The notes under the pieces are model-generated. The model was given only the letters and a program-made list of their open reading frames with translations. It was not told where the DNA came from and did no database searches. A stretch of DNA of 64,000 bases from Nostoc sp. PCC 7107 (GTDB taxonomy: Bacteria; Cyanobacteriota; Cyanobacteriia; Cyanobacteriales; Nostocaceae), in assembly GCF_000316625.1 (NCBI RefSeq), contig NC_019676.1, positions 3,242,501 through 3,306,500 on the forward strand, written 5' to 3'. The first letter of the stretch is position 1. Each line of letters begins with the position of its first letter. Below are positions 46,720 to 64,000 of the stretch, in pieces. Position numbers and translations under genes: made by a program.

Positions 46720-47265
46720 TTATCTATCTTCATAAATAAAAGTAGAAAGAATAGCAAAAATGTCAGAAATCAGGCGAAGGGGACTGGTGGATACAGAATA
46801 CCACCTATATGTGTTTAGTAAGTCCCAGTGATTTTTTTGTAATACCTGACTATCACCATAAGTATAGATAATAATGGGACTTCTCTGTCTTTTTGCTTCA
46901 TTAAATACGGCTTCAAAGTAATTAAAATCATTTCCAACTCCTAAAATTATAAGACTTCCATGATTTATATTACTGATTTGCATAATATTAGTATTAGGAA
47001 TTAATATAGGTTCTACTTTTTTAAATAAAGGATTCTTTTGAATTTCTGCAAATTCAGCACTCATATCCCTATTACATTTATTGGGTGGGTCGAATATCTT
47101 AATTTTTCTCTCCAAATTTTTAAATAATATTCTTTCTCGCTTAAAGATAATATCGAGAAATTTGTAAGTGGTAAATGAACCAACAGCTATTGAAGAAAAG
47201 ATTGTTAAAATACCAATTAACAAATCAAGATTACTTAGATTTTGATAAATTGTTTGCCCATTCAT
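46720..47265 (-). CDS. Membrane-anchored alpha/beta protein, left flank of the type III operon
   Basis: 181 aa. One membrane helix at about 14-36 (LDLLIGILTIFSSIAVGSF), a basic linker, then a C-terminal domain (about 55-176) with strand-helix patterning: GSLIILGVGNDFNYFEAVF, PIIIYTYG, and NTYRWYSVSTSPLRLISDIF. By eye this domain matches in order the C-terminal domain of the 270-aa protein at 56675-57487. I do not recognise a named family. It is divergent from cas10, so it may share a promoter region with it. Effector or sensor role is inference. Confidence 0.65.
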   Translation of the reverse strand: MNGQTIYQNLSNLDLLIGILTIFSSIAVGSFTTYKFLDIIFKRERILFKNLERKIKIFDPPNKCNRDMSAEFAEIQKNPLFKKVEPILIPNTNIMQISNINHGSLIILGVGNDFNYFEAVFNEAKRQRSPIIIYTYGDSQVLQKNHWDLLNTYRWYSVSTSPLRLISDIFAILSTFIYEDR

Positions 47266-47628
47266 ACTCTTTATTCGACTAAAAAGTGTATTTGGTACCT
47301 GAGTCTCATCCAGCTAATTAGTAAATTAAAGCATAAAGACTTTATCAGTATAAATTTAATAATATCTGCTTTACATATAGCGATATAAAGTATCAATAGA
47401 ATATATAAATTAACATTCATTCCTATAAGTTGATTGATTTTTATCAGAGAAAAATATTTGTAACTCACTAGGGGCAAAACATAAAATATTTTCATTTTGA
47501 CTGGAAACTCAGTATGAGTTAGTGTAGATACTTAAAAGATAAAAATATTACCTACTAACAAAGTCTATCGGATTGCAAAATAAGTACTGACAGGTAGTTA
47601 ATAACCTCTAAATGCCTGATTTAACAAC
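47266..47628. other. AT-rich divergent promoter region of cas10
   Basis: About 360 bp between the membrane protein and cas10. A hydrophobic AT-rich frame within (47271-47495) is not called. It probably carries the operon promoter, but I cannot pick out -35/-10 boxes with confidence. Confidence 0.45.
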
Positions 47629-50031
47629 ATGAATGACGAATCTCGCACGCGCATAATTACTGCTCTAGCCTGGTGTCTCGCTTGGGACAAAAGGCACAAT
47701 CTCAATCAGGATGAACTCAGTACCCTGCATCAAATGCGACAGGCATTGCAAAAAGGGCAGGATGTACCAGAAAGCATAAAACCTTTTGTTCAACAGGCAC
47801 AGCGCCTATATGAGACTTTTAAAGACTGTACTCCCAAAACACTGAATGAGTTAAAAGGAAAGGAGGATTACTTAAAACTTTGGGAGGATAAAATACGCAT
47901 TGGCTTAGTTTATGGTGGTGCGACAAAGATTAAACAATATGTTTTTGAAGCAGCGAAGCTTCATGATATACGTGGTGCTTCAGCACTGCTTGACCAGATA
48001 AATTTGGTTGATTTACGTATATTTTTTGCTGATTATTGTGAGGAAAGTTTAAGTTTAATTACTGTAACTTTAATTGAGGATATCGAGAAGTGGCTAGATA
48101 CTAATTTTCCTAATTTAAGAAAAGCTTTAATTCCTGAGCTAATTATTTATTCTACAGGTGGTAATATTCTGGCATTTTGTCCAGCAGCATTTGTTGATGA
48201 TTTAGCGAATGCTATTGAAAAACGCTATACTCATGAAACTTTAACAGCTAATTCCTGTGCCGTTGGGGATACTTTTAAGTTATTAGAATTTCGATTTGGT
48301 TTGTTGCAAGACAAAATAGAAGATACTTTCTGGTTTGATGAGTACGAGAATAACCAAGGAAATTCCATAGTCCAAGCTTATTTTGACCAGTCAGAAGTTA
48401 GCGATCCTTTTGAAAGGTTCCAAAATCGTAAGAATTTTAACGAGCTGGTGGGAAAATTAGCAAATCAGTTCACACAAAGACGCAACGGTAATAAACTACC
48501 CAAAAAAGAACCAACAGACAAAGAACGTCTAAGTCGCTGCTATCCACCGATATTTGAAACTCATCCATATCTGCAACGGGATGAAAGCGATCGCCGTTCT
48601 GCAATTATGAGAGTAGAGTTACCAAATAGTAGTTTTTTGTCGGAACCTCTGGCGCGAAAACGCTTGGTAGGAGAGATTGCTAAACGCGAAAGTTCTCACG
48701 ATTGGTATGACAAGGCAAACTTAGAATGGAGACCTTTCGATATTTGGATTCCTAGCTGGGTAAATAAGTTTGAGGATTTTCTTAATAAAGATAAGAATCA
48801 ACAATTAGCTAATCGATATTATGGTAATGTCAATGAAAAAGTAGAAGAAGCGCGTTCTTTGAGAGAAATTGCATCAGCTAGTAAGCCATCAGGATTTGTG
48901 GCTTATATCTATGCTGATGGTAACAATATGGGTGGTTATATTCGTCAAAAAATTAAAACACCACAAGATTATCGACTTTTTAGTGAAGATATTTTTGAGG
49001 CTACAGAGCAATCTGTTTACAAAGCTTTAGCTCAATATTTACATCCTTATCAATATACACCTGATGCTAAATCTAGCAGAACTAACAAAGAACCTGTTTG
49101 GATTCATCCTTTTGAAATTATTACTATTGGTGGTGATGATGTATTGCTAGTCGTTCCAGCAAATAAGGCTTTAGAAATTTCTAAAGCTATTGGTGATGAG
49201 TTTGAAGAACATTTGTGGAGGACTGGCCGTTATTCATTAGAGCCAACAACACCTAATTTATTAGCTCATCGCTACACCACAGAGAATGTACCGCCAGTTT
49301 CAAAATGCCTGTTGAGTATGTCAACTGGGGTATTGATTACAGCACAGGATACGCCAATTTATTATGCAGACAAACTGGTAAGTCAACTACTAAAATCGGC
49401 AAAGAAGTATGCGAAGGAATTAAAGAAAGACCACAAATATTATGGTGGAACAGTTGATTTTTTGGTGATGAAAGCTGTAACGATGATTTCCTCGAATATT
49501 AAGGAGTTTCGAGAACAGGGATTAATCAAAAATAAAGATGGAGAATCTAAGTTAAAGCTGTATGCTTCTCCCTACACCTTATATGAATTGGGAGGACTTA
49601 TAGAAACTGCTAAAGCATTTAAAAAAGCCGAATTTCCCCGTTCTCAACTTTACCAAATTCGCAGTTTACTAGAACGAGGTAAGCGTACAGCTATCCTTAA
49701 CTATCGTTATTTTCGGATTCGACTAACTAATGAAGCAGCTAAACAAGAATTAAAAGATAAATTTGAATCGGCTTGGTGTGATGCACTTACAAATAATGGG
49801 AATATAGCACCTTGGTTATCTGATATTGCTAGTATTCGCCGTAACTTATTACTACTAATTTTCCTAGAGGCTTTACCTCCAGAAGAATTCCGAACGCACT
49901 ATGTAGTTCTAACTTTGCTCAAAAAATATACTTATGAAACCATTTGGCGAGAATTAGTTGATTTGTATCCATTTATTGCTGAAGAAACAGAATCTCTTAC
50001 CGAAAAAGCAACTACACCAGAGGTAAGTTAA
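47629..50031 (+). CDS. cas10: Type III CRISPR Cas10, cyclase-competent, HD domain absent
   Basis: 800 aa. The first Palm domain is marked by AAKLHDIRGASALLD (108-122), the His-Asp there being part of that motif, not an HD nuclease; the preceding ~100 residues show no HD signature. IYADGNNMGG (427-436) belongs to the other core strand, and the second Palm has the GGDD cyclase site at 501-504 in IITIGGDDVLLVVPA. Cas10 with intact GGDD makes cyclic oligoadenylate on target-RNA binding (family knowledge). First gene of the operon; its stop overlaps the next ATG by one base. Confidence 0.93.
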   Translation: MNDESRTRIITALAWCLAWDKRHNLNQDELSTLHQMRQALQKGQDVPESIKPFVQQAQRLYETFKDCTPKTLNELKGKEDYLKLWEDKIRIGLVYGGATKIKQYVFEAAKLHDIRGASALLDQINLVDLRIFFADYCEESLSLITVTLIEDIEKWLDTNFPNLRKALIPELIIYSTGGNILAFCPAAFVDDLANAIEKRYTHETLTANSCAVGDTFKLLEFRFGLLQDKIEDTFWFDEYENNQGNSIVQAYFDQSEVSDPFERFQNRKNFNELVGKLANQFTQRRNGNKLPKKEPTDKERLSRCYPPIFETHPYLQRDESDRRSAIMRVELPNSSFLSEPLARKRLVGEIAKRESSHDWYDKANLEWRPFDIWIPSWVNKFEDFLNKDKNQQLANRYYGNVNEKVEEARSLREIASASKPSGFVAYIYADGNNMGGYIRQKIKTPQDYRLFSEDIFEATEQSVYKALAQYLHPYQYTPDAKSSRTNKEPVWIHPFEIITIGGDDVLLVVPANKALEISKAIGDEFEEHLWRTGRYSLEPTTPNLLAHRYTTENVPPVSKCLLSMSTGVLITAQDTPIYYADKLVSQLLKSAKKYAKELKKDHKYYGGTVDFLVMKAVTMISSNIKEFREQGLIKNKDGESKLKLYASPYTLYELGGLIETAKAFKKAEFPRSQLYQIRSLLERGKRTAILNYRYFRIRLTNEAAKQELKDKFESAWCDALTNNGNIAPWLSDIASIRRNLLLLIFLEALPPEEFRTHYVVLTLLKKYTYETIWRELVDLYPFIAEETESLTEKATTPEVS

Positions 50032-50744
50032 TGATTTATTTAGATAGCCTTTCTGCTGTTGAAACTGATACTATCCAACTTAAAGCTGTAATTGATACTG
50101 CATTGTGTGTGGGTGCGGGTGGTTCCTCTGGTTCATTGGCTGATAAACCCATCGTTCGCAATGCACAAGGACAACTTATCATACCTGGTTCGCAACTCAA
50201 AGGAAGATTGCGTCATGAATGCGAAAAGCTGGCACGTAGTCTAGGATGGCAAATATTTTCTGCACCTTCAGCCACATCACTTTGTCCGACTGAAGAACAA
50301 GTATCGAGTCAGTTTAGAAACGATTATCAAATTGAAGGCTACAAAGGATATCACTGTTTTGTTTCTCAGATATTTGGCGATCCAATTTTACCTTCACGGG
50401 TAATTGTTGATGACTTGATTTGTTCTTTTGCAGCAGGAGATTTAGAAGAAGTTTTGCGTCCTGGTGTGACAATTAACCGCAGAAGACGCACCGCAGAGGA
50501 GAAAAAATTGTATTTGTTAGAAACTTCTCCAGTCAATACTCAATTAAGTTTTATAGGAGAAATTCATCTGTTACCAAATCACCCAAATTATGCCAAACCT
50601 TTAATAGTTGCAGCCTTACATCATATTCACGCCTTGGGTGGTAGCAAATCTGCGGGGTTAGGATGGTTGCATTGGGAAGGACTACCGCAGATTTCTAGCG
50701 ATGATCCTGTTTGGTCAAGTTTATTACCAAAGGCGGAATCATGA
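50031..50744 (+). CDS. Type III RAMP (Cas7-like) subunit 1
   Basis: 237 aa, a single RRM-like RAMP. IIPGSQLKGRLRHECEKLA at about 50-68 is the RAMP crRNA-binding loop; GGSKSAGLGWLHW near 203-215 is the C-terminal glycine-rich loop. Asp38 in LADKPIVRN aligns with the catalytic Asp of Csm3/Cmr4, so it may cut target RNA. A ~50-residue insertion (about 75-125) carries QIFGDPI. It overlaps the previous gene by 1 and the next by 4 bases. Confidence 0.85.
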   Translation: MIYLDSLSAVETDTIQLKAVIDTALCVGAGGSSGSLADKPIVRNAQGQLIIPGSQLKGRLRHECEKLARSLGWQIFSAPSATSLCPTEEQVSSQFRNDYQIEGYKGYHCFVSQIFGDPILPSRVIVDDLICSFAAGDLEEVLRPGVTINRRRRTAEEKKLYLLETSPVNTQLSFIGEIHLLPNHPNYAKPLIVAALHHIHALGGSKSAGLGWLHWEGLPQISSDDPVWSSLLPKAES

Positions 50745-52018
50745 CACGACTGGAATTAACTATCACAGCTTTATCTCCCCTCGCACCAGGACGACAAAAA
50801 CCCGGAGGTTCCGTGAGTGAGGTGGAAAATTATATTTCTGGTTCGGTGTTGCGGGGTGCGATCGCTTCCCAAATTTTACAACTATCTGGTCAGCATTCAG
50901 CAAATTTGGCGGAAGATGGTGGTAATTTTCAAACTCTATTTTTAGGGGAGAATCCCGCGATTTTTGGGAATGCTTACCCCGCAGTTGCGAAAATAGACGA
51001 TAAATCGATAGTTGTAAATCAGCCAATCAAGGTTTTACCTGCAACGGCTGTTAGTTCCAAAACCAATCCAGGCTTTACTTCCAGTCGCGGCGGACATGGA
51101 GTCTTTGATACTCTCATCGATGCTTTTTGTGCAGCAGCCTATAATCAACCTTACGACCCCAGCGACCCAAAAGCGATCGCACAAGGAACAAACCCTCAAG
51201 TCGAAACTTACAATAGTTTTTACAGCAAAGTAAAAGATAAATATTATAGCCACGATGCAACTAGCCGCTTTTTAACACGAGTGGGAATTAATCGTCGTCG
51301 CGCCACTGCGGAAGAAGAAATCCTTTATAGCGTGCAAGTTTTAAATGAGTCTTTTTTGAAAAATACTAAGACAGATGAATGGGATAAGGTCGTATTCCGT
51401 AGTTTTGTTGTTGTTCCCAATGAATCTTTAGCTGAAGCGTTGCAAAGATTCATCGAGAATAATTCTTGCATCTTCCGTATTGGTGGTTCGGCTTCTAGAG
51501 GTTTAGGTAAGGTCGAAATTAAAGTCAGCAAAGGACAATCACCAGCGAAAAGCATTAAATCTCGAATTGATGAATTTAACGAAGCATTAAAAACTAGGTG
51601 GAAACTTTGGTCTATTTTTTGTCAACCTCAACATGATTTATTAACAGGTCGAACTTATTTCACTCTTGATTTACAATCTGATGCTATTCTTACCGAGAAT
51701 TGGCAACGCACAACGGTAGTTTCAGCCGAAATGTTAAAGGATTTCGCCAAAGTTGATTCATCGCTAGAAATGCACCTTGCTTATAGCAGCTATGAATATC
51801 GTTCTGGCTGGAATTCTGCTTGGGGGTTGATGAAAGATGTGGAACTTGTCACTACGAAAGGTTCTGTGTATTTGTTTAGTACAACAGAACCAGAAAAATG
51901 GTATACAGCGCTAGAGGATTTGGAAAATAAAGGAATAGGCGATCGCACCTGTGAAGGTTTTGGCCAAGTAGAAGTTTGTAACGAGTTTCATCAAATATTT
52001 CGGGAGGATGCAAAATGA
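50741..52018 (+). CDS. csx10: Csx10-like RAMP protein
   Basis: 425 aa from the ATG at 50741 (ATGA overlap with the previous gene). The N-terminus MTRLELTITALSPLAPGRQ with GGSVSEVENYISGSVLRGAIA at 22-42 and the C-terminal GIGDRTCEGFGQVEV (near 395-410) fit Csx10, the marker RAMP of subtype III-D, which takes a Cas5-like place at the crRNA 5' end. Two RRM-like halves are expected. NRRRATAEEEI around 190 is a basic loop. Ends with a 4-base overlap into the next gene. Confidence 0.8.
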   Translation: MTRLELTITALSPLAPGRQKPGGSVSEVENYISGSVLRGAIASQILQLSGQHSANLAEDGGNFQTLFLGENPAIFGNAYPAVAKIDDKSIVVNQPIKVLPATAVSSKTNPGFTSSRGGHGVFDTLIDAFCAAAYNQPYDPSDPKAIAQGTNPQVETYNSFYSKVKDKYYSHDATSRFLTRVGINRRRATAEEEILYSVQVLNESFLKNTKTDEWDKVVFRSFVVVPNESLAEALQRFIENNSCIFRIGGSASRGLGKVEIKVSKGQSPAKSIKSRIDEFNEALKTRWKLWSIFCQPQHDLLTGRTYFTLDLQSDAILTENWQRTTVVSAEMLKDFAKVDSSLEMHLAYSSYEYRSGWNSAWGLMKDVELVTTKGSVYLFSTTEPEKWYTALEDLENKGIGDRTCEGFGQVEVCNEFHQIFREDAK

Positions 52019-52524
52019 CTCAGATATTAGATCCACAGGTGGCGTTGAAGGTGCAAAAAGCAATTTATCAAGCTGAAGATGATTTAGTGATTGCAATTGA
52101 AACAGCTTTAGATAATTGTGAATATATTAAAACGGGCGATAAAAAACTAGAAGAATCACAATTTAATAATTTGCTGAGAGTTGCTGACACAACTGATAGT
52201 CCAGAAGTAATTAAAAATTTTATTTGTTATCAAGTTGGTAGAGATGAAAAATGGGGACGAGGTAGAAATTCTCTTGCAGCTAAAATCATTCAAGATATCG
52301 ATATTTATTTAAAAACAAGAGCTAATCAAATTGTTACAGATAATCCAGGTGCCGATTTGAAATATATCTGGATACAACTTATCCGTCGTTATATTGGTTA
52401 CGGTTCACGTTATTTAAAATATCTCAATGAAGTGAAAAAAAATTCAAATTCATCTGTTGTTAACCCTCGAAATGTAGAAGGAAATCGAGACACAGCAGAC
52501 ACAAGTAATAAAAATGGTAATTAG
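52015..52524 (+). CDS. Probable type III small subunit (Cas11-like)
   Basis: 169 aa, predicted wholly alpha-helical, from the ATG overlapping csx10 by four bases. DPQVALKVQKAIYQAEDDLV, FICYQVGRDEKWGRGRNSLA and IQLIRRYIGYGSRYLKYLNE suggest packed helices and a basic face. The size and position suit a Csm2/Cmr5-like Cas11 subunit lining the target RNA. The C-terminal ~30 residues are Asn/Ser-rich and probably disordered. The call rests on position and fold guess. Confidence 0.6.
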   Translation: MTQILDPQVALKVQKAIYQAEDDLVIAIETALDNCEYIKTGDKKLEESQFNNLLRVADTTDSPEVIKNFICYQVGRDEKWGRGRNSLAAKIIQDIDIYLKTRANQIVTDNPGADLKYIWIQLIRRYIGYGSRYLKYLNEVKKNSNSSVVNPRNVEGNRDTADTSNKNGN

Positions 52525-52529
52525 TTATT

Positions 52530-53441
52530 ATGTTTGATACTTTTAAGAATCGTTTAGAAATAACAGGAAAACTCTCTAGTGTTACTGCATTACGGATTAG
52601 TGCTGGTCGTTCTACCGAGCCAATTGGGGCTGATTTACCTGTAATTAAAGACGCATTAGAACAACCATTCATTCCTGGTTCTAGCTTCAAAGGCGCATTG
52701 CGATCGCGCCTTGAAAGTTTCTTGCGAGGAATTGATACGAGTCTGGCTGCAAATCCGGCAATTGAAGCAGAATGGTCTATTACAAATGAACGCATGAACG
52801 GTAAAACTGGTATTAAAGTAGAGGTAGAAAATGAACTAAAAAATTATCCAGAAAATGAGCGCGCTGCTAGAAGAGACATAATTCTTACAGATAAAATTCT
52901 CTATGAAACTGATTTAATTTCTCATCTTTTTGGTTCATCTTGGATTGCTAGTAAATTTCAAGTGCGAGATTTAACAATAGTACCCGGTACATGGTTTGGA
53001 CAATATCAAGAAAGAGATGGGGTAGCAATTGACCGTGATACAGAAACAGCAGCAGAGGGAAAACTTTACAATTTTCAAGTAGTTCCGTCTGGTACAAGCT
53101 TTGATTTAAAAATAGTAGTAGAGAACGCAGAAAAATGGGAATTAGGTTTACTGATGATTGGCTTACATCAATTTGAAAGCGAACAAATCCCGCTAGGCGG
53201 CGGACGTTCTCGCGGTTTGGGTGTTGTAAATTTAAAAATTGATAAAATGCAATGGTTTGAGACTGAAAATGATGCGGAAAAGCTTTTAAATTATCTGCAA
53301 AATCAAGTCACAGGAAACATGAGTAACTATCAATACGGAGAAGAAAAAATAGAAATACTCAAGAAAGAATGGACGCAAGCTTTAATTTGGTATTTACGAT
53401 GCTTAATACCTGGAACTTCTGTAACTCAAACCTCAACTTAA
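52530..53441 (+). CDS. csx7: Csx7-like RAMP (Csm3 family)
   Basis: 303 aa. FDTFKNRLEITGKLSSVTAL at the N-terminus, then GADLPVIKDALEQPFIPGSS (33-52) with Asp35 in the place of the catalytic Csm3 Asp, and SSFKGALRSRLESFL. IPLGGGRSRGLGVVNLKI near 220-237 is the C-terminal G-loop. I recognise it as the Csx7 (TIGR02581) type. As a Cas7 backbone subunit it would hold crRNA and cut target RNA every 6 nt. It lies five bases after the previous gene. Confidence 0.88.
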   Translation: MFDTFKNRLEITGKLSSVTALRISAGRSTEPIGADLPVIKDALEQPFIPGSSFKGALRSRLESFLRGIDTSLAANPAIEAEWSITNERMNGKTGIKVEVENELKNYPENERAARRDIILTDKILYETDLISHLFGSSWIASKFQVRDLTIVPGTWFGQYQERDGVAIDRDTETAAEGKLYNFQVVPSGTSFDLKIVVENAEKWELGLLMIGLHQFESEQIPLGGGRSRGLGVVNLKIDKMQWFETENDAEKLLNYLQNQVTGNMSNYQYGEEKIEILKKEWTQALIWYLRCLIPGTSVTQTST

Positions 53442-53451
53442 AAATATAACC

Positions 53452-54429
53452 ATGCACAAGCGATTAGTTAACCACTGCACAATTGATTTCAGCATCATTC
53501 CTGTCGAGCCAATTTTAATTAAATCGGGAAAAGAAGGTGCAGACCCAACGAAGCCTAACATGGAATTTGTAGAGACTTACCATGCTGGTGGACGTTCAGT
53601 TTACCTTCCGGGAAGTTCGCTTAAAGGAGCAATTCGCGCTCATGCTGAACGTATTGTTAGAACGGTGGGAAGTGATAAACGTCCAACATTAGATCCCAAA
53701 TCAGATAAATTTGAACTTTGGGCTGATGACCCTTTGAAAAATGAAAATTCCGAATATTACAAAAAATTACCCCCTGCTGAAATATATAAACAATCTTCTT
53801 TTACTGACCAAATATTTGGTAATACTAGCATCGCTAGTCGTATCCGTATTCAAGATGCTTATCCTACTACTTCAATACCACTTAAAATTGAAGAACGTAA
53901 TGGAGTTGCAATTGACCGCGTTTTTGGTTCTGCTGTGCGCGGTGCATTATTTAATTACGAAGTTTGTACATCTGGAGATTTTCGCACAAAAATTCATTTA
54001 AAAAATTTCTCTTTGGCACATTTAGGTTTAATTGGTTTAGTCTTGCGAGATTTAGATGATGGTTGGTTTGGTATTGGTTTTGCCAAATCTCGCGGTATGG
54101 GTACAGTCAAACTGCAATATCACTCGGCTGTAGTGCAATATCCTGGCTGTGAGTTACGAGATGATAGAATCTACGCTATTGGTAAAGATTTAAATTGGTC
54201 AAATAAGTTTTTATTAGGAGCAGGAGAATTTTTACCAGGGAAAGATGAAAACCCTTATAAATTTCCTGTTGATGATAAACAAGATACTATAATCACTGCC
54301 GCAGAAATGTCTTATGGTTTTGGGGTGCAATTAACTTGGAAGGGAGAAGATGAGAGGGGTGTTCCAGATTTATTTGAACGCGCTGTTCGTCAATGGCGTG
54401 AGTTATTACCAAAAGGAGTTAGTGCATGA
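53452..54429 (+). CDS. Type III RAMP (Cas7-like) subunit lacking the usual catalytic Asp
   Basis: 325 aa. YLPGSSLKGAIRAHAERIV (51-69) and FGIGFAKSRGMGTVKLQY (near 201-218) are RAMP loops. At the expected catalytic position the sequence reads TKPNMEFVET rather than D-x-PVIKD, so it is probably a structural, non-cleaving backbone member. DQIFGNTSIASRIRIQDAYP resembles the Cas7 mid-domain. It overlaps the Csx19-like gene by four bases. Confidence 0.82.
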   Translation: MHKRLVNHCTIDFSIIPVEPILIKSGKEGADPTKPNMEFVETYHAGGRSVYLPGSSLKGAIRAHAERIVRTVGSDKRPTLDPKSDKFELWADDPLKNENSEYYKKLPPAEIYKQSSFTDQIFGNTSIASRIRIQDAYPTTSIPLKIEERNGVAIDRVFGSAVRGALFNYEVCTSGDFRTKIHLKNFSLAHLGLIGLVLRDLDDGWFGIGFAKSRGMGTVKLQYHSAVVQYPGCELRDDRIYAIGKDLNWSNKFLLGAGEFLPGKDENPYKFPVDDKQDTIITAAEMSYGFGVQLTWKGEDERGVPDLFERAVRQWRELLPKGVSA

Positions 54430-54881
54430 GTTTTGTGGGATATAAGCAAGCCTCATCTCCAGCAGAATTACGAAAATTACTTCAAGATTATTATCAGCAG
54501 CCTAGTTATTATTTTCTGCGTTGGTCACATCAAGTCAGCGGGATTAAAGCTGATTTACCAGCAAACTTTCCTAGTCCAGAAGGGCAAATGTTTAACACAG
54601 AACTAGAGCTACGCTGGAAGCAGAATAATGAGGGTTATCAAGTGTTATTTCTCGGTCGAAATCAGCCTAAATTAGAATCAAAATTTAATCCTATTGGTAA
54701 AGATTGGATAACTAGCGATCGCAAAGCTCATTTTTATGATAAAGATGAGACTAAATTTCCTAAAGGATTTACCTATCCTGAGAAACTTGCTTTAGCTTTA
54801 GGTCAACGATACTTTCAAGATGCTCAAACTTCAACTATACATTTTGTTGCTTTAACTGTCTGTAAAAACATAAAATTATAA
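54426..54881 (+). CDS. Csx19-like protein
   Basis: 151 aa starting in an ATGA overlap. YYFLRWSHQVSGIKADL, GQMFNTELELRWKQNNEGYQ and VLFLGRNQPKLESKF give an alternating-strand pattern. The size and position between RAMP genes match TIGR03984/Csx19 of III-D loci, but motif agreement is loose. Csx19 is a structural part of III-D complexes. No catalytic motif is seen. Confidence 0.6.
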   Translation: MSFVGYKQASSPAELRKLLQDYYQQPSYYFLRWSHQVSGIKADLPANFPSPEGQMFNTELELRWKQNNEGYQVLFLGRNQPKLESKFNPIGKDWITSDRKAHFYDKDETKFPKGFTYPEKLALALGQRYFQDAQTSTIHFVALTVCKNIKL

Positions 54882-54892
54882 TTTTCAAAGAT

Positions 54893-55981
54893 ATGCCAAA
54901 AAACTATGACTTTGTACCCTTACCACAACAAAAACCTGATAGAGTTAATATTCAAGGAAAAGAAGGAAAGGATAAGTTTGGACATGATAAATATCAACTC
55001 AACACTCAGCGTTTTAGTGGGAAGTTATTTTTGGATTTAACAGTTGTTTCACCTTTAACTGTAAATTCAGGTATTACTGTGATGGGCAGCGATTTAGCAC
55101 AACAAACTCTAGATCCTACCTCAGCTAAATATGTTGCCACAATTAGTCTAATTCAATCTTCTGTACAACAAAATCAACGACTTATAATTCCGGGTAGTTC
55201 TCTCAAAGGAGTTGTACGTTCAATATATGAAGCCATCACCAGGAGTTGTTTATGTAAAACTAATGCAAAAGTTCCTGATGGCTACAGCGAGTGTAAAGAT
55301 ATCTCACAACTTTGTCCAGCTTGCGTAACATTTGGTGCAATGAGTTGGCTGGGACTAGTACATTTTCATGATGCAAAATATGATCCTGATAACGATAAAC
55401 CAGGCTTCCAAACAGGACTGATTACTCCTTTATTTTCACCGAAACCTGAAGCTGTTGATTTAGAAACTGGTGAAAAAATTTATTATGATAAAAATAATAA
55501 AATTCGCGGTCGCAAATTTTATCCCCATTCTTACCAAGAAGAAGTCAAACCAACAATTCGCATTCAACAAGCAGAAACAGGTAAAAAGTTCACCACTTAT
55601 GTGAATTATGCCAACGTAACAAAACCACAACTAGGAACATTATTAATTGCTTTAGGACAAGACCCAGAAAACCGACTAGGATTAAAAATTGGTAGCGGTA
55701 AAGCGGTAGGAATGGGAACTATGAGGATAGATGTAGTTAGAATTGAGCAATTAAATATTAATCGCTACTTATCTTATAATTCAAACTCCTCAGCTTTAGA
55801 AGGCAATAAATTACAAACATTCATTTTAGATGCAATTAAATCTGCTAAACCTCAACCTCAAGCAACTCCAGCAAAAAATCAACTTAATAAACCTGTAGTT
55901 AAATCGGCTAATCAACCATTAGTACAACTAAAGCAGTTAGAAAAAATTAAAGCATTATTAGGATTAACAAAAAACGCATAG
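54893..55981 (+). CDS. TIGR03986-like RAMP with a zinc-type Cys cluster
   Basis: 362 aa. The N-terminus MPKNYDFVPLPQQKPDRVN is typical of TIGR03986 RAMPs. IIPGSSLKGVVRSIYEAITR near 97-116 is the crRNA-binding loop and GLKIGSGKAVGMGTMRIDV (near 263-281) the C-terminal G-loop. Between them lie four Cys as SCLC...C...CPAC (118-144), expected to bind Zn. The C-terminal ~70 residues are Gln/Pro/Lys-rich and likely disordered. Probably a Cas7/Cmr6-like end subunit. Confidence 0.8.
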   Translation: MPKNYDFVPLPQQKPDRVNIQGKEGKDKFGHDKYQLNTQRFSGKLFLDLTVVSPLTVNSGITVMGSDLAQQTLDPTSAKYVATISLIQSSVQQNQRLIIPGSSLKGVVRSIYEAITRSCLCKTNAKVPDGYSECKDISQLCPACVTFGAMSWLGLVHFHDAKYDPDNDKPGFQTGLITPLFSPKPEAVDLETGEKIYYDKNNKIRGRKFYPHSYQEEVKPTIRIQQAETGKKFTTYVNYANVTKPQLGTLLIALGQDPENRLGLKIGSGKAVGMGTMRIDVVRIEQLNINRYLSYNSNSSALEGNKLQTFILDAIKSAKPQPQATPAKNQLNKPVVKSANQPLVQLKQLEKIKALLGLTKNA

Positions 55982-56005
55982 TAGTAATTTAAAGGATAAT
56001 CAGCA

Positions 56006-56659
56006 GTGCAACCTAAACAATCTTTGTCAGAAGACCAGATGTGGAATACTGCTCACAATATTGCTAAAATGCTTGTTCAAGAACAACAACGCATTGAAGC
56101 AAGCAAAGATGGTATTCGCTCTCAATTAGGTAAAGTAATTGCCTACCTACGTGCAACTATTAGTCAAAATCCATCTGATAATAGCGAGCGTTTTTTTAAG
56201 TATCTAAAAACACTTGCTGATAGTAGTAAAAGTGTCAAACAAACTGATAGAACTCCTGATTATTGCCGCAGTATTAATAAAGCTTGTAATGATTATCTGA
56301 AAAATATAGAAGCAAATCCCAAAGATATATTAGAAATTTTAGGCTGGACTTTTCGCTTATTTAATTACTATAAAGTTACTCCTTTAGAGGATTTTGAAAA
56401 GCTGTCATTATCAAATAGGCAAATGGAAATACAAACAGTTGCTAAATCTCAAAAGTTGCAAAAAGGTGATGAGATAGAAGCCAACATAACAAAAATTAGT
56501 GGCAATAAAGTTACCTATCAATTATTAAATATTTTCTCTAAAACAGTAAGAGAAGCAAAACATTATACATCTTTACAAATTGGGCAAACAGTCATAGTTG
56601 AAATAACTGAAATAGAAGATGGAGTTCCCAAAAAAATTAAATATATTAAACATAAATGA
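56006..56659 (+). CDS. Uncharacterised OB-fold-like protein ending the type III operon
   Basis: 217 aa from a GTG start, with AAAGGA 9-14 bases ahead. Residues 1-140 are helical with basic patches (KDGIRSQLGKVIAYLRATIS); the last ~70 (QKLQKGDEIEANITKISGNKVTYQLL...IGQTVIVEITEI) read like an S1/OB-fold RNA-binding unit. I recognise no Cas family. Its 24-bp distance from the previous gene indicates co-transcription, so a crRNA-complex or RNA-binding role is plausible. Confidence 0.7.
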   Translation: MQPKQSLSEDQMWNTAHNIAKMLVQEQQRIEASKDGIRSQLGKVIAYLRATISQNPSDNSERFFKYLKTLADSSKSVKQTDRTPDYCRSINKACNDYLKNIEANPKDILEILGWTFRLFNYYKVTPLEDFEKLSLSNRQMEIQTVAKSQKLQKGDEIEANITKISGNKVTYQLLNIFSKTVREAKHYTSLQIGQTVIVEITEIEDGVPKKIKYIKHK

Positions 56660-56674
56660 ATAATGAAACAAAAT

Positions 56675-57487
56675 CTACAAATTATTTTGTCCATGCGCCA
56701 CATAAGCCGCATCAGCAACCATACCTACTAAAGTAATTGCTGTATTTGCAGGTGCATAGTACCTACCCTTAAATGTAGCGTTATTAATCGCTTTGATTGC
56801 TGGTGGAGCGACGTAGATTACTAAAGTCGCTGTTTGTGGCAAAATCTGTATAAATTCATCAATAATTCGCTTGGCAGTTTCTTCTCGTTTATCACCTGGT
56901 GGCAATTCAGAAAATTTTTTACCCGCAGTATCAACAGAATTTTCTAAATCCAAAACACATACATCAGCTAAAAACTTCTGTGGAATCGTTGTTTTATTCC
57001 AAAATTTTACATTTTTAAATTCCCTAGCTACGAGTAATTTATATTCATTTGTTTCTCCATCTGATGATGGTAAATAATAATCTACAGTAGTTGAACTAAT
57101 AACCCGTTCGCGTTGTAAAGTTCGTTTAACATTCCTAACTTCTTTTTTTACTAAACGGGCAATATGATTATCAATTTCTTGTTGAATAGCCTGAGTTGCA
57201 ACTTCTTTAGCACTTTTTAAATTGTTACCAAACACAAAAACGACAACTCCGCCCAAAAATGCAAATACGACTAAGGTAAATTGCATTGCTGCAACAAATC
57301 TATTAAAGCTTTCACCTAGTTGACCATTTGTAGTCTTGAGAAATTCTAGCTGGCTTTTGAGTAGTTCAATATCATTGATATTTTTTGCTGGACTTACTAT
57401 TGGTGAGGGTGTGACTGTAGGAGTTGGAGTTTGGGCAATAACTAAATCCCAAAGGTGGGATAAATCAATTGTAGGTAGCCAATCCAT
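56675..57487 (-). CDS. Membrane-anchored alpha/beta protein, right flank of the type III operon
   Basis: 270 aa. The N-terminus has TPTPTVTPSPIVSP and a coiled-coil-like stretch (38-60), one membrane helix at about 65-87 (AAMQFTLVVFAFLGGVVVF), a long basic helix (90-128), then a domain at about 130-265: LADVCVLDLENS, TATLVIYVAP, and KGRYYAPANTAITLVGMV. That order of strands and helices mirrors the 181-aa protein at the other end of the operon. Convergent with the operon, 15 bp after its last gene. No known family assigned. Confidence 0.68.
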   Translation of the reverse strand: MDWLPTIDLSHLWDLVIAQTPTPTVTPSPIVSPAKNINDIELLKSQLEFLKTTNGQLGESFNRFVAAMQFTLVVFAFLGGVVVFVFGNNLKSAKEVATQAIQQEIDNHIARLVKKEVRNVKRTLQRERVISSTTVDYYLPSSDGETNEYKLLVAREFKNVKFWNKTTIPQKFLADVCVLDLENSVDTAGKKFSELPPGDKREETAKRIIDEFIQILPQTATLVIYVAPPAIKAINNATFKGRYYAPANTAITLVGMVADAAYVAHGQNNL

Positions 57488-58002: not shown

Positions 58003-58532
58003 ATTTCCATCCCCGTGAGGGGTAATTAATTGAAAACAGAAAACGTAAGGCACATGAACGCGATTATTCAAAGTTTCCATCCCCGTGAGGGGTAATTAAT
58101 TGAAAACCCCTTATTAGGCGTGGTGCTTTTGAGAATGGGTTTTTTGTTTCCATCCCCGTGAGGGGTAATTAATTGAAAACAAATTGGAGATTTTAGACAT
58201 GTCTGGACAAATTATTTCCGGTTTCCATCCCCGTGAGGGGTAATTAATTGAAAACAAGCCGGTTAAGACATAATTTTTAGCCCCCCGTGAGGGGTAATTA
58301 ATTGAAAACCGGGTCTAAAGGGTATGCGTTACGTTTCCTGATAGAGTTGTTTCCATCCCCGTGAGGGGTAATTAATTGAAAACTGCAACCCCCAGATCCC
58401 ATTCAGCCGGGATTAAACTTTGTTTCCATCCCCGTGAGGGGTAATTAATTGAAAACCATGCGTGAGCTGTTCGAGTTGGCTTATCAACTGACTCATAGTT
58501 TCCATCCCCGTGAGGGGTAATTAATTGAAAAC
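58003..58532 (-). CRISPR. CRISPR array 1, 8 repeats and 7 spacers
   Basis: Repeats of 35 bp, beginning GTTTCCATCCCC on the plus strand and ending ATTGAAAAC, at 58003, 58073, 58146, 58221, 58275 (degenerate), 58349, 58422 and 58498. Spacers are 35-41 nt except the fourth, only 19 nt. Reading the minus strand, the CCCC/GGGG hairpin is followed by ATGGAAAC, the usual 8-nt 5' handle form, so transcription is inferred from high to low coordinates. The terminal changed copy (A for G at 58003) then lies at the trailer end, as expected. Confidence 0.97.
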
Positions 58533-58827
58533 CCTACCCTTTTGGAACACTTGCTATGACTGGGTTTGAAAGTGCCATTTTAGCGGGGGGTCTGATTTTA
58601 CTATCAATAAACCTACTTTATTGACAATTGGATACCATCACAGACACCTCAAAGCCTTACTGAGTAAGTGATTCGCGGGGGTCAACGAAAGAATCAGGGT
58701 TTCAAGCATTGCCTTACCCCCGCGAAAAATTTGCGTGTGAAAAGTAAAAATCAAGACTTTAACTTTCACCAGGAAACGCAATATTAAGTTTTCAAGGTTC
58801 TGCTTTCTTGAAACAGAGTATACCAAA
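58533..58827 (-). promoter_or_regulatory. Probable leader of CRISPR array 1
   Basis: About 295 bp between the array and cas6. If the array is read on the minus strand this is its leader. It contains an 11-bp inverted repeat, TTCGCGGGGGT (58672-58682) and ACCCCCGCGAA (58716-58726), around a 33-base loop. No gene is called here. Confidence 0.6.
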
Positions 58828-59943
58828 CTACTCCTCAGTTTTTAAAGCGCGACGTGCCAATTTCACATAAGTTTTTACAGTTTCATAAGGCATTTCTAAA
58901 TCTTCTGCCACCACCTGCAACGACTCTCCCATTTCTCGCCTTGCTAAAATTGTCGCCCATTTTGAGGCGATTTCATCTGCTCGTTCTCCACCCGTTCGTT
59001 TGCGTCGTGCTTTAAATATCTGTGTTAAATCTTCAATGCGTTTCGCCAAGACAGTTTGCACATCAGGTAAATCTTGAACCACTTGAGATGACCAACCCAA
59101 ACGTGTTTGTCCCAAACCAAAAGTAGTTTTGTGACCAGTACCGCAGTAAGGTGCAAGTTTTCCTAAAGCAAAAAATAACTGCTCAAATTCTGGTTGTTTG
59201 GCTGCATCTTTAGTTAAAGCGAACTCAATAGCCCCAGTAAATCCTGTGACTGCGCCTTTTTTTCCCGCCAGCACTTTTGCGGTTGTAAGTTGACAACGTG
59301 TAATCAATACATGGTCATCTACCCAAGCCAAAAAAGCATCTTGGTCAAAAGACATTCCCGAAAAATCATTCCAGCGTCGCAGGTAGCTATGAAATACATT
59401 TACTGGCACTGGTAAAGGGAAGTGATGACCTTTGCGGCGAAAACTTGTCGGACTGAGAAATTTTAAAGCAATAGTTTCACTATGCTCAGATTCTAGAAGT
59501 TCGGCATAAGTTGTGGGAGAATGGGCAATACTAACAGACCGAATCTGCAAAGGTGCATTTTTCAAATCAAGCACCTCTGGCAAATTTCCCACCCACTGCA
59601 CCATCCACTGTTGCACTCGACTAGATAAAGCTGTGAGATACCAACGATAGGAAGTGTTTGCAGATAATTTTATTTGTCTGCCACTACTGGTAATGTCTCC
59701 ATTTAAGGCTGAGATAGTAAAAGGTTTCTCTGACTCCCCATCATGGAGGTAAGCAGAAAGTTCTGGGTCTTGGGAACGCACTTGTTCCAGAAACCAAGCG
59801 TGGAGTCCAATAGTGTACTGCGGGAAGAGGTCATAATCTTTTGCAGGGACTAACTCAAATTCCAAGGCAAGTAACTCTGTGTCCTGCGGCCATATAAGCT
59901 GAGACAAAGAAGTATCTACCTTTTTTTGAGAGCGTCGAGGCAT
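58828..59943 (-). CDS. cas6: Cas6 crRNA-processing endoribonuclease with C-terminal HTH
   Basis: 371 aa. The two ferredoxin-like folds end in the glycine-rich loop CGTGHKTTFGLGQTRLGW (267-284), the Cas6 signature. FLSPTSFRRKGHHFPLP at 162-178 is typical of cyanobacterial Cas6. Residues 320-368 form an added HTH-like domain (GESLQVVAEDLEMPYETVKTYV), as in some cyanobacterial Cas6 proteins, possibly for DNA or RNA contacts. Cas6 cuts the repeats to give the 8-nt handle. It may serve both arrays, since their hairpins are identical. Confidence 0.93.
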   Translation of the reverse strand: MPRRSQKKVDTSLSQLIWPQDTELLALEFELVPAKDYDLFPQYTIGLHAWFLEQVRSQDPELSAYLHDGESEKPFTISALNGDITSSGRQIKLSANTSYRWYLTALSSRVQQWMVQWVGNLPEVLDLKNAPLQIRSVSIAHSPTTYAELLESEHSETIALKFLSPTSFRRKGHHFPLPVPVNVFHSYLRRWNDFSGMSFDQDAFLAWVDDHVLITRCQLTTAKVLAGKKGAVTGFTGAIEFALTKDAAKQPEFEQLFFALGKLAPYCGTGHKTTFGLGQTRLGWSSQVVQDLPDVQTVLAKRIEDLTQIFKARRKRTGGERADEIASKWATILARREMGESLQVVAEDLEMPYETVKTYVKLARRALKTEE

Positions 59944-60450: not shown

Positions 60451-60756
60451 CTATGAATCATGATGATTAAAGCCTAACCAATGCAAAACCTGTTCAGGAA
60501 TTTCCTCAAAATGTTCCAGCAAAAAATCCATCAAAGCCAGATGAAGTAAATCATTATGTGTGGGATAGCGTCGATTAGAGCCATTTCTAAACCAGCCTCT
60601 AACTGTTGAATCAGAACGGGAACATATCAAAGCAATTAGTTCATAACTGACAGCCCATTTCGCATAAAATTCTGTTGGTGTCATACCGAAATTCCAATTG
60701 CTATAGAGAAAAATCAGACGTTGTTCCCGCGTGGTAATTCGACGAAGATTAGACAT
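60451..60756 (-). CDS. Small HTH-domain protein
   Basis: 101 aa from the ATG at 60756; an upstream ATG at 60777 is also in frame. TTREQRLIFLYSNWNFG then MTPTEFYAKWAVSYELIALICSRSDSTVRGWF suggests a helix-turn-helix whose recognition helix ends in VRGWFRNG. No partner is clear. It could regulate the RelE-like toxin gene 92 bp away, but no antitoxin fold is recognisable. Confidence 0.6.
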   Translation of the reverse strand: MSNLRRITTREQRLIFLYSNWNFGMTPTEFYAKWAVSYELIALICSRSDSTVRGWFRNGSNRRYPTHNDLLHLALMDFLLEHFEEIPEQVLHWLGFNHHDS

Positions 60757-60848
60757 GATAAATAAGTTAAAAGTCAAAAGGCAAAATCAAAAGTGACGTA
60801 GTAGGTTGGGTTCCACTTCGTTACACCCAACCTACATTTATTGCTTAA

Positions 60849-61246: not shown

Positions 61247-61525
61247 CTAAACGATAAATGCTGCGTCATCTACTACAAACTCAGGTTGTGTTCCCAACAC
61301 TGCGACCTTACAACGATTGTGTGCAGACATGGGGTAAAATCTAACTTGGTCTTCCCGTTTATTCACAAGTCGAAAGAGATATTTAGATAGACTTTCGTAC
61401 TGCTTTTCATCTAACACACACTCAAAAACCGACTTTTGCACCCGCAAACCATAAGACTCTAAAAGTTTTGCGACTTTGTTGCGACGGGTATCACTAACAA
61501 TGTCGTAGCAAACCAAATAAAACAT
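61247..61525 (-). CDS. cas2: Cas2
   Basis: 92 aa. MFYLVCYDIVSDTRRNKVAKLLESYGLRVQKSVFE is the Cas2 ferredoxin core, with Asp8 and Asp12 at the metal site. It forms a complex with Cas1 that integrates new spacers. Its ATG overlaps the cas1 stop by one base (TAATG), so the pair is translated together. Confidence 0.96.
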   Translation of the reverse strand: MFYLVCYDIVSDTRRNKVAKLLESYGLRVQKSVFECVLDEKQYESLSKYLFRLVNKREDQVRFYPMSAHNRCKVAVLGTQPEFVVDDAAFIV

Positions 61526-62565
61526 TATCGTTTCACCAGTTTTAAAGGAACAGTTTGCGGTTTGATGGTATTGGTGAAATCAGAATTTGCAGGATGAAAC
61601 TTCAACGCCAAGGGACGGTAAAATTCCACATCTCCTAGTAATGATGCAAGATATTCTCGTACCTGTAAGTCAAGACATTGACGATAACTTATTTCTCCAG
61701 CGTAAGGATGCAATACGAAAGTTCGCAGTTTTCCTTCCCAATGTTGGAGAAACTTTTGTAGAAGTTTGTGTGAGTGACTTTTACCGTTACCGTTACCATT
61801 GGTATTAGCTAGATTTCGGATAAAATTTAGCACCAAGTCATCAACCATAAGTGTGCGAAATTCTGCGGTAAAGTCCCATGCTAAAGGCAGTTCATTATGA
61901 TTATTGCGATGTAAAATTGCATAATTGGGGTCGAGTCCTACCGTATTTAGCAGTGTGTAAATATATTGGTGTAGCAGTTGGTTGCCTAAATCTATCAGTC
62001 CGCTAATACGCTTACTATTGATATAAGGAGAGCCATTGTAAAAGCTGAGTAAAGCAGTCAAGGCACAGTAATAAATATTATCAGCTTCTTCGCTGTATTC
62101 GTGCAGTTCTTCGATTCCTGGTGCTACTGATAAATTATCCATCAAGAGTGTCAGATAATTTAATGCACGTTGGATTATGTAATTAGTATAATGACGAGTC
62201 CAATTTTGCAAAAAGGTATGTTGATTGTGCAGTTTTGCCCAGATAATACTTTCGGCTGTAGCACGATTAAACTCTTTATCCTGTGCGCGTCTATGTTGGT
62301 AGGTGAGATATTTTGCTTGTCGTTGGGATGGGTTTTCTAACCTCCCTAAATATTCACCAGTTTGGGTTAAATATAAGACGGGAATGTTATGTGAGCGAAC
62401 AATTTGAATGACTTCTTTTGGTAAATTGATATTACCAAAGATGATAAACTGACTGAGATTGCGGATGGGAATACAAATGCGTTGAGTTTGTTGATAAAAC
62501 ACCTTTAAATATTGGTGTTGAATTTGGAATGTTACGTCCTGTTCAGTGATGTAAATTGTAGACAT
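61525..62565 (-). CDS. cas1: Cas1 integrase
   Basis: 346 aa. Start MSTIYITEQDVTFQIQHQYL; active-site elements are the Glu region around 152-160 (GIEELHEYSEEADNIYY), GLDPNYAILH with His219, and LAWDFTAEFR with Asp231 and Glu235. It is not fused to reverse transcriptase, unlike many type III cyanobacterial Cas1 proteins. A Thr-Asn-Gly-rich insert (NTNGNGNGKSHSHK, 254-267), made by three GGTAAC-like hexamers, lies after the core and is likely a disordered loop. Confidence 0.94.
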   Translation of the reverse strand: MSTIYITEQDVTFQIQHQYLKVFYQQTQRICIPIRNLSQFIIFGNINLPKEVIQIVRSHNIPVLYLTQTGEYLGRLENPSQRQAKYLTYQHRRAQDKEFNRATAESIIWAKLHNQHTFLQNWTRHYTNYIIQRALNYLTLLMDNLSVAPGIEELHEYSEEADNIYYCALTALLSFYNGSPYINSKRISGLIDLGNQLLHQYIYTLLNTVGLDPNYAILHRNNHNELPLAWDFTAEFRTLMVDDLVLNFIRNLANTNGNGNGKSHSHKLLQKFLQHWEGKLRTFVLHPYAGEISYRQCLDLQVREYLASLLGDVEFYRPLALKFHPANSDFTNTIKPQTVPLKLVKR

Positions 62566-63578: not shown

Positions 63579-63614
63579 CTATTTCAGCTCATTTGTTTCA
63601 GAGTATGGCAAAAC

Positions 63615-64000
63615 GTTTCCATCCCCGTGAGGGGTAAGTGATTTAAAACGGAGATTTGCAAAAAATAAAAAACGCTATGTCAAGTTTCCATCCCCGTGAG
63701 GGGTAAGTGATTTAAAACCTCTCTGCAAAATCAGGGAGAAGAATTGACCCCTGAGGAAGAAGCCGTTTCCATCCCCGTGAGGGGTAAGTGATTTAAAACA
63801 AGAGAGATCCACATATTTTTACAGTTGAAATTCTTGAGTTTCCATCCCCGTGAGGGGTAAGTGATTTAAAACTCTTTGTATTAGGATCACTAGCATACTT
63901 CCACCATGAGGTTTCCATCCCCGTGAGGGGTAAGTGATTTAAAACCCTAAATGGAGAACAGCTTACTTCCAAAACTGTAAATGTTTCCATCCCCGTGAGG
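63615..64000 (-). CRISPR. CRISPR array 2, truncated at window end
   Basis: 35-bp repeats at 63615, 63684, 63765, 63838, 63911 and a cut one at 63983; spacers 34-46 nt. The repeat begins as in array 1 but ends GATTTAAAAC and differs at positions 24, 26 and 30 of 35. The same minus-strand handle (ATGGAAAC) is present. If read on the minus strand the leader lies beyond base 64000. Confidence 0.97.

What the first reader, a model, noticed from the sequence alone, without database searches (positions are those of the whole stretch)
46720..57487. Type III operon bracketed by two membrane-anchored proteins with matching C-terminal domains
The 181-aa protein (46720-47265) and the 270-aa protein (56675-57487) each have one membrane helix and a C-terminal domain showing the same order of elements: a strand with acidic or small residues (GSLIILGVG / ADVCVLDLE), a helix, a strand reading IIIYTYG / LVIYVAP, a helix, then an aromatic segment YRWYSVSTSPLRLISDIF / GRYYAPANTAITLVGMV. 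They flank a Cas10 operon whose cyclase seems active and which lacks a recognisable CARF effector. Seen: the architecture and the by-eye match. Inference: membrane sensors or effectors of cyclic oligoadenylate. Csx23 (membrane segments plus cOA-binding domain) is a precedent by layout only.
Basis: partly seen in the sequence, partly recalled or inferred. Interest (0 to 1): 0.75.

Follow-up and report, generated by a model that had tools for sequence, protein, structure and literature searches.

The report
Paired receiver-fold membrane proteins beside CRISPR
On either side of a cyanobacterial type III CRISPR operon sit two small membrane proteins whose inner parts are predicted to share one receiver-like fold; one fits the published but untested candidate effector Cam2, the other is a less known relative, and both may sense the CRISPR alarm signal and harm the membrane.

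The parts
46720..47265 (-). P1, 181 aa, one membrane helix plus receiver-like C-terminal domain; PADLOC C3a59
   Evidence: (4.8e-60)
56675..57487 (-). P2, 270 aa, one membrane helix, long helix, receiver-like C-terminal domain; PADLOC Mem_02/C3a55; probable Cam2
   Evidence: (8.7e-102, 3.5e-95)
47629..50031 (+). cas10, palm domain with GGDD, no HD domain reported
50031..50744 (+). Csm3/Csx7-type subunit
50711..52018 (+). csx10, signature of type III-D
   Evidence: 4.3e-137; 1.6e-136
52015..52524 (+). csm2-type small subunit
   Evidence: 2.4e-66
52530..53441 (+). csx7 RAMP
   Evidence: 2.9e-70
53452..54429 (+). Csm3/Csx7-type RAMP
54426..54881 (+). weak match to Csx19 (E 0.0042, below cut-off)
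54893..55981 (+). RAMP protein
56006..56659 (+). csx21
   Evidence: 1.1e-75
58004..58537 (.). CRISPR array, 8 repeats in the listing
58828..59943 (-). cas6
   Evidence: 3.3e-21
61247..62565 (-). cas2 and cas1; these two names were given by me from the translations and by similarity to genes in related loci, one of them annotated as cas1/cas2

Best explanation
P1 and P2 are two membrane effectors of this type III-D system. Each sits in the membrane by one helix, with a degenerate receiver-fold (REC-like) domain in the cytoplasm as the sensor. P2 is a Cam2-type protein; P1 belongs to a second, shorter family (C3a59) with the same predicted fold and probably the same origin, which also has close kin filed as a '1TM' effector, most likely of CBASS. 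When the Cas10 complex meets phage RNA it makes a cyclic oligoadenylate; this binds the pocket at the C-terminal edge of the receiver sheet, probably between protomers held together by the long helix, and the change passes to the membrane helices, which open a pore or depolarise the membrane and stop the cell. Shown here: place, membrane segment, predicted fold, linkage to type III loci, P1's match to the '1TM' model. Inferred: topology, oligomer, ligand, pore. For P2 the messenger is most likely cA3 (about 0.45), because relatives lie beside NucC or CHAT-SAVED genes; for P1 it is unknown and assumed to be the same.
Against: No binding, oligomer or pore was tested. Sequence homology of the domains is not significant, and P2 itself ranks only at 19% with the P1 profile. 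P1's model rests on 5 sequences; residues 61-100 have pLDDT 51-66, and its structural list also holds IF2, Moco carrier and TIR folds. 5 of 28 P2 relatives have no type III or cas gene in the stretch fetched. One P2 relative lies beside a CARF-PDDEXK protein (L039), which speaks against cA3 alone. No NucC or SAVED3 protein was found in the window's genome, though the controls were silent.
Confidence: 0.6

Rival explanations
1. P2 is the effector and P1 is its partner: a subunit, brake or regulator of P2 (or a mixed channel of both), rather than an independent effector.
For: P1 was found only in genomes that have P2 or a P2 remnant at the same locus (4 of 4), while P2 occurs without P1 in 24 of the 27 Nostocaceae genomes with a P2 match. 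With kinship ignored, three of three by chance is about 0.0017, or 0.014 without the window's genome.
Against: In Gloeothece the P1 genes are intact while P2 is reduced to a C-terminal piece, so P1 can outlast P2. P1's kin in the '1TM' model suggest an effector in its own right.
Confidence: 0.2
2. The two proteins are membrane sensors or regulators of CRISPR expression or adaptation with another ligand (not a Cas10 product).
For: The domain is receiver-like, and receivers usually regulate (recalled). 5 of 28 P2 relatives show no cas gene in the stretch fetched; 2 of 28 have only cas6, or cas6 with cas1 and cas2.
Against: 21 of 28 are beside type III subunits, and the neighbours include known messenger-activated effectors. 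All 28 genomes searched (27 with such a P2 relative, and G444) hold a Cas10 match, though the rate in genomes without P2 was not measured.
Confidence: 0.12
3. P2 is a working phospho-receiver under a histidine kinase.
For: An invariant Asp (D180, 25 of 25) stands at the end of strand 3, where I recall the phospho-acceptor of receivers to lie.
Against: The acidic pair after strand 1 and the Lys after strand 5 that I recall as defining are absent; the latter is Asn in 25 of 25. P1 has no Asp at the end of strand 3. Hoikkala 2024 argues against phosphorylation of Cam2 for lack of a kinase.
Confidence: 0.05
4. The likeness is convergence: both are common doubly wound a/b domains, and the shared order of elements says nothing of a shared role.
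For: Reversed profiles score nearly as high as the real pair; P1's structural list includes several other a/b folds.
Against: Cross-hits to C3a59 in register and three coinciding conserved positions.
Confidence: 0.3

Closest known systems
Cam2, CRISPR-associated membrane protein 2 (Hoikkala, Graham and White 2024, PMC11229360; abstract, sections 11 and 18 and passages read)
   Same: N-terminal membrane helix, C-terminal REC fold, type III loci, NucC and SAVED-CHAT as neighbours. P2 agrees on each point tested.
   Different: The Cam2 sequences were not at hand, so identity of the families is inferred. P1 is shorter and matches another profile (C3a59). Cam2 has no experiment in the library that I found.
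PADLOC Mem_02/C3a55 and C3a59 (type III-associated clusters; the C3a names I recall from Shah and co-workers, a paper not held)
   Same: P2 and P1 are members by profile.
   Different: No fold or function is given there beyond 'membrane protein with a globular domain', 'ABC permease' and 'trans-membrane'.
PADLOC 'Effector, 1TM' (PDLC00664), read here as a CBASS effector
   Same: 4 of 5 P1-family members match, best 6.4e-57 over 162 residues.
   Different: The P1 genes found lie beside type III operons; P1 itself matches only at 0.0012, and one of five members not at all.
Csx23, Cam1 and Cap1 (Cap1: abstract and passages of PMC12642688 read; Csx23 and Cam1: search listing only)
   Same: Membrane helices joined to a cytosolic messenger-binding domain in type III systems; the proposed action is of this kind.
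   Different: Their sensor domains are described otherwise (Cap1: CARF-like, two membrane helices, cA4); here REC-like and one helix.

Membership tests
Cam2 (for P2) | N-terminal membrane helix region | tested here: met
   one segment 68-86; helix 38-86 in the model
Cam2 (for P2) | C-terminal REC fold | tested here: met
Cam2 (for P2) | encoded in type III loci, at times beside NucC or SAVED-CHAT | tested here: met
   21 of 28 beside type III subunits; NucC 2, CHAT-SAVED 4 of 36 loci
Cam2 (for P2) | match to the published Cam2 profile or sequences | not testable with these tools
   supplements and profile not held
Cam2 (for P1) | membrane helix plus C-terminal REC fold | tested here: inconclusive
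PADLOC Mem_02 (P2) and C3a59 (P1) | profile match over nearly the whole protein | tested here: met
   8.7e-102 and 4.8e-60
PADLOC 'Effector, 1TM' (for P1) | profile match | tested here: inconclusive
   4 of 5 members match, best 6.4e-57; P1 itself 0.0012 over residues 74-180
PADLOC 'Effector, 1TM' (for P1) | gene beside a CD-NTase, as in CBASS | tested here: inconclusive
   the five P1 loci are type III loci; no locus of the model was found to compare (0 of 146 genomes, controls silent)
canonical phospho-receiver (REC) | phospho-acceptor Asp at the end of strand 3 (recalled) | tested here: met
   P2 D180 in 25 of 25; P1 family has none there
canonical phospho-receiver (REC) | acidic pair after strand 1 and Lys after strand 5 (recalled) | tested here: not met
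   P2: no acids at 138-140, Asn at 248 in 25 of 25
CARF or SAVED effector | CARF or SAVED domain | tested here: inconclusive
   no profile hit for P1 or P2; fold lists shown hold no such row, which does not exclude it

The most novel reading that the evidence does not exclude
A degenerate receiver fold marked by Tyr at the end of strand 4, Asn after strand 5 and Leu in helix 5 is a further class of cyclic-oligonucleotide sensor beside CARF and SAVED, shared by type III CRISPR (Cam2/Mem_02 and C3a59) and CBASS (1TM effectors) and coupled to a membrane helix; here two such proteins bracket one Cas10 operon and may answer different messengers or form one mixed channel.
Probability: 0.3. Interest if true: 0.75.

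Novelty: new variant of a known kind. Interest (0 to 1): 0.5.

Why it matters
The 2025 CRISPR classification (PMC12669027, passages read) calls the cOA sensors 'almost exclusively' CARF and SAVED. If the receiver-like domains of P2 and P1 bind a Cas10 product, that rule has an exception with two sequence families and perhaps a bridge to CBASS. The neighbours found here (2 NucC, 4 CHAT-SAVED, 1 TIR-SAVED; against them 1 CARF-PDDEXK) add to the cA3 prediction that Hoikkala 2024 drew from 1 and 2 cases. The locus is a compact system for a test: a Cas10 with its cyclase motif, no other known effector recognised among the proteins scanned, and two membrane candidates.

Tried and rejected
Homology of the two domains by profile comparison: not significant. 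Sequence search of the PDB with both profiles: best E 0.021 and 0.4, nothing meaningful. Pfam and NCBIfam: no family for P1 or P2; weak Pfam hits for P2 relatives agree on nothing. More P1 relatives in plasmids, phages and viral contigs: none beyond Gloeothece. PADLOC '1TM' and Mem_04 models in 146 and 148 genomes: no match, but the controls were silent too, so absence is not shown. NucC and SAVED3 in the window's own genome: no match, controls silent. Foldseek against the pdb library could not be run (queue full); VIA-align lists were used. No CARF or SAVED row is among the 50 shown for either model. The two models could not be superposed on each other. A promoter or terminator in the P1-cas10 gap: nothing above chance. 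Tree of 25 P2 relatives: poorly resolved, 14 of 22 inner branches open; the two NucC-linked rows stand apart.
Full report
What is there. P1 (46720-47265, minus, 181 aa) and P2 (56675-57487, minus, 270 aa) lie at the two ends of a plus-strand type III-D operon, 47629-56659. P1 is divergent from cas10; P2 is convergent with the last gene, csx21. Beyond P2 come xisI, a CRISPR array (58004-58537), cas6, a small conserved gene, cas2 and cas1. Cas10 shows GGDD; Pfam reports its palm domain and no HD domain. No CARF or SAVED hit is listed for the window proteins scanned; the genes upstream of P1 were not scanned.

Known families. P1 matches PADLOC C3a59 at 4.8e-60; P2 matches Mem_02 at 8.7e-102 and C3a55 at 3.5e-95. 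Both were thus already catalogued as type III-associated clusters, without a function. Pfam and NCBIfam give no family for either.

Membrane and topology. A hydropathy scan gives one segment in each, followed by basic residues, so the C-terminal domain is predicted cytoplasmic. This is a simple scan, not a trained predictor; it finds no segment in the P1 relative of G578 (L047) or in the truncated L042. PADLOC describes Mem_02 as 2TM.

Homology. Against 379 unrelated proteins of the same loci the 5 P1-family members rank in the top 0.5% to 13% with the P2 profile; the 25 P2-family members range from 0.8% to 78% with the P1 profile, 10 of 25 at 5% or better, P2 itself at 19%. Independently, PADLOC's C3a59 model is hit by 2 of 25 P2 relatives: L025 (E 0.0033, residues 209-288 on model 76-156) and L026 (0.023). 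Three positions agree in place within the models: Tyr as the last residue of strand 4 (25 of 25; 5 of 5), the residue after strand 5 (Asn 25 of 25; Asn 3 of 5) and Leu as the fourth residue of helix 5 (25 of 25; 5 of 5). I judge common origin likely (about 0.65), not proved.

Not a working phospho-receiver. P2 keeps an Asp at the end of strand 3 (D180, 25 of 25), but neither the acidic pair after strand 1 nor the Lys after strand 5 that I recall as defining. The P1 family keeps none of the three. A pocket at the same edge of the sheet (P2 D180, N183, Y225, N248, each 25 of 25) is my guess for the ligand site.

Distribution of P2. From I took the 28 matches that cover most of the protein (27 genomes) and dropped the fragments in G640, G560 and G573 and the remnants in G444; at least G531 and G561 have a stop inside. 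Of the 28, 16 lie within 12 kb of a Cas10 match and 5 more (G042, G579, G531, G199, G635) lie beside other type III subunits, in G635 a weak Cmr6 piece only: 21 of 28. In G501 the Cas10 is a fragment. Two (G632, G652) have cas6 with cas1 and cas2, or cas6 only. Five (G587, G598, G641, G191 on C1, G561) show no such gene in the stretch fetched. All 28 genomes searched (those 27 and G444) hold a Cas10 match somewhere, so action in trans is possible; the rate in genomes without P2 was not measured. The operons are III-D, III-B and, by the best subtype-labelled profile, III-A at L080.

Company of P2. Among 36 distinct P2 loci (the 28 plus 8 further ones), NucC lies within 2 kb of P2 in 2 (L028, the same record as L041, and L029), CHAT-SAVED in 4 (L025, L026, L073, L084), TIR-SAVED in 1 (L038) and a CARF4-PDDEXK protein in 1 (L039). 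All 36 were tested for NucC and CHAT-SAVED by tblastn; PADLOC was run on chosen neighbours only, so other effectors may be missed. Hoikkala 2024 (section 18) describes Cam2 as membrane helices plus REC domain in 26 loci, once beside NucC and twice beside SAVED-CHAT, and predicts cA3. P2 fits on each point that could be tested; the sequences could not be compared. In the library only that paper holds Cam2 together with CRISPR and Cas10 since 2024, so I found no experiment on Cam2.

P1. C3a59 matched in 1 of 194 genomes of the phylum, the window's own, 2 of 388 of the order, 3 of 217 of the family and 1 of 98 relatives of G444, which is Gloeothece itself; the sets overlap. In all: four genomes, five loci (the window, G578, G646 and two plasmid loci of Gloeothece verrucosa PCC 7822). 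In the first three, P1 and P2 bracket a III-D operon in the same order and relative orientation. In Gloeothece P1 lies beside III-B operons; a C-terminal piece of P2 remains at both loci, in one behind the CRISPR array. With P2 in 27 of 217 genomes, three of three P1 genomes having it by chance is about 0.0017, or 0.014 without the window's genome, kinship ignored. Of the 5 P1-family members 4 match PADLOC 'Effector, 1TM' (best 6.4e-57; P1 itself 0.0012) and 3 match Mem_04 (best 6.4e-6), which PADLOC describes as a possible diverged CARF. I read the 'Effector' label as CBASS because the other models of that name met here are endonuclease, NucC and TIR types; no CBASS locus was seen.

Mechanism. 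Most likely: target RNA activates Cas10; a cyclic oligoadenylate is made; the receiver-like domains of P2 and P1 bind it; the membrane helices rearrange and depolarise the membrane. Only anatomy and linkage are shown. cA3 is favoured for P2 by its company (about 0.45); L039 speaks against cA3 alone. Cap1 is a proven messenger-gated membrane effector with another sensor fold (abstract and passages); Cam1 and Csx23 I saw in a search listing only.

Novelty. P2 is a probable member of a published candidate effector. The additions are the receiver-like model of P1, its ties to P2 and to the '1TM' model, the repeated bracket, and more cases of NucC and CHAT-SAVED company. The paper searches listed no paper that describes C3a59 or such a pair; two older surveys that may do so are not held, and supplements could not be read.

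Noticed in passing
58828-59943 (minus): The Cas6 protein has a C-terminal stretch (331-366) with a weak sigma-70 region 4 match (E 0.0017, below cut-off), as if a helix-turn-helix were fused to Cas6.
   Followed up: no
60451-60777 (minus): A small protein of about 107 aa without a Pfam match recurs near cas1/cas2 in several related type III loci (L019, L020, L021, L022, L085, L087).
   Followed up: partly
L019:10578-11426: In Gloeothece a TIR-domain gene (PADLOC CRISPR-T 1.3e-55, TIR-TM 3.2e-52) stands at the head of the III-B operon beside the P1 relative.
   Followed up: partly
L078, L081, L036, L088, L019:10388-10465: Several P2 relatives are broken or reduced to pieces, as one might expect of a costly protein.
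   Followed up: no
58004-58537 and 63611-64000: Two CRISPR arrays with slightly different repeats (TAATTAATTGAAAAC against TAAGTGATTTAAAAC at the end) lie on the two sides of cas6-cas2-cas1; the second runs off the window.
   Followed up: no
L022:15150-18636: On a Nostoc plasmid (G042 C2, same length as NZ_CP091914) a P2 gene 94% identical to the window's lies beside a III-D operon whose csx10 is cut short next to a 984-aa ORF; the nearest Cas10 match on the contig is 63 kb away.
   Followed up: no
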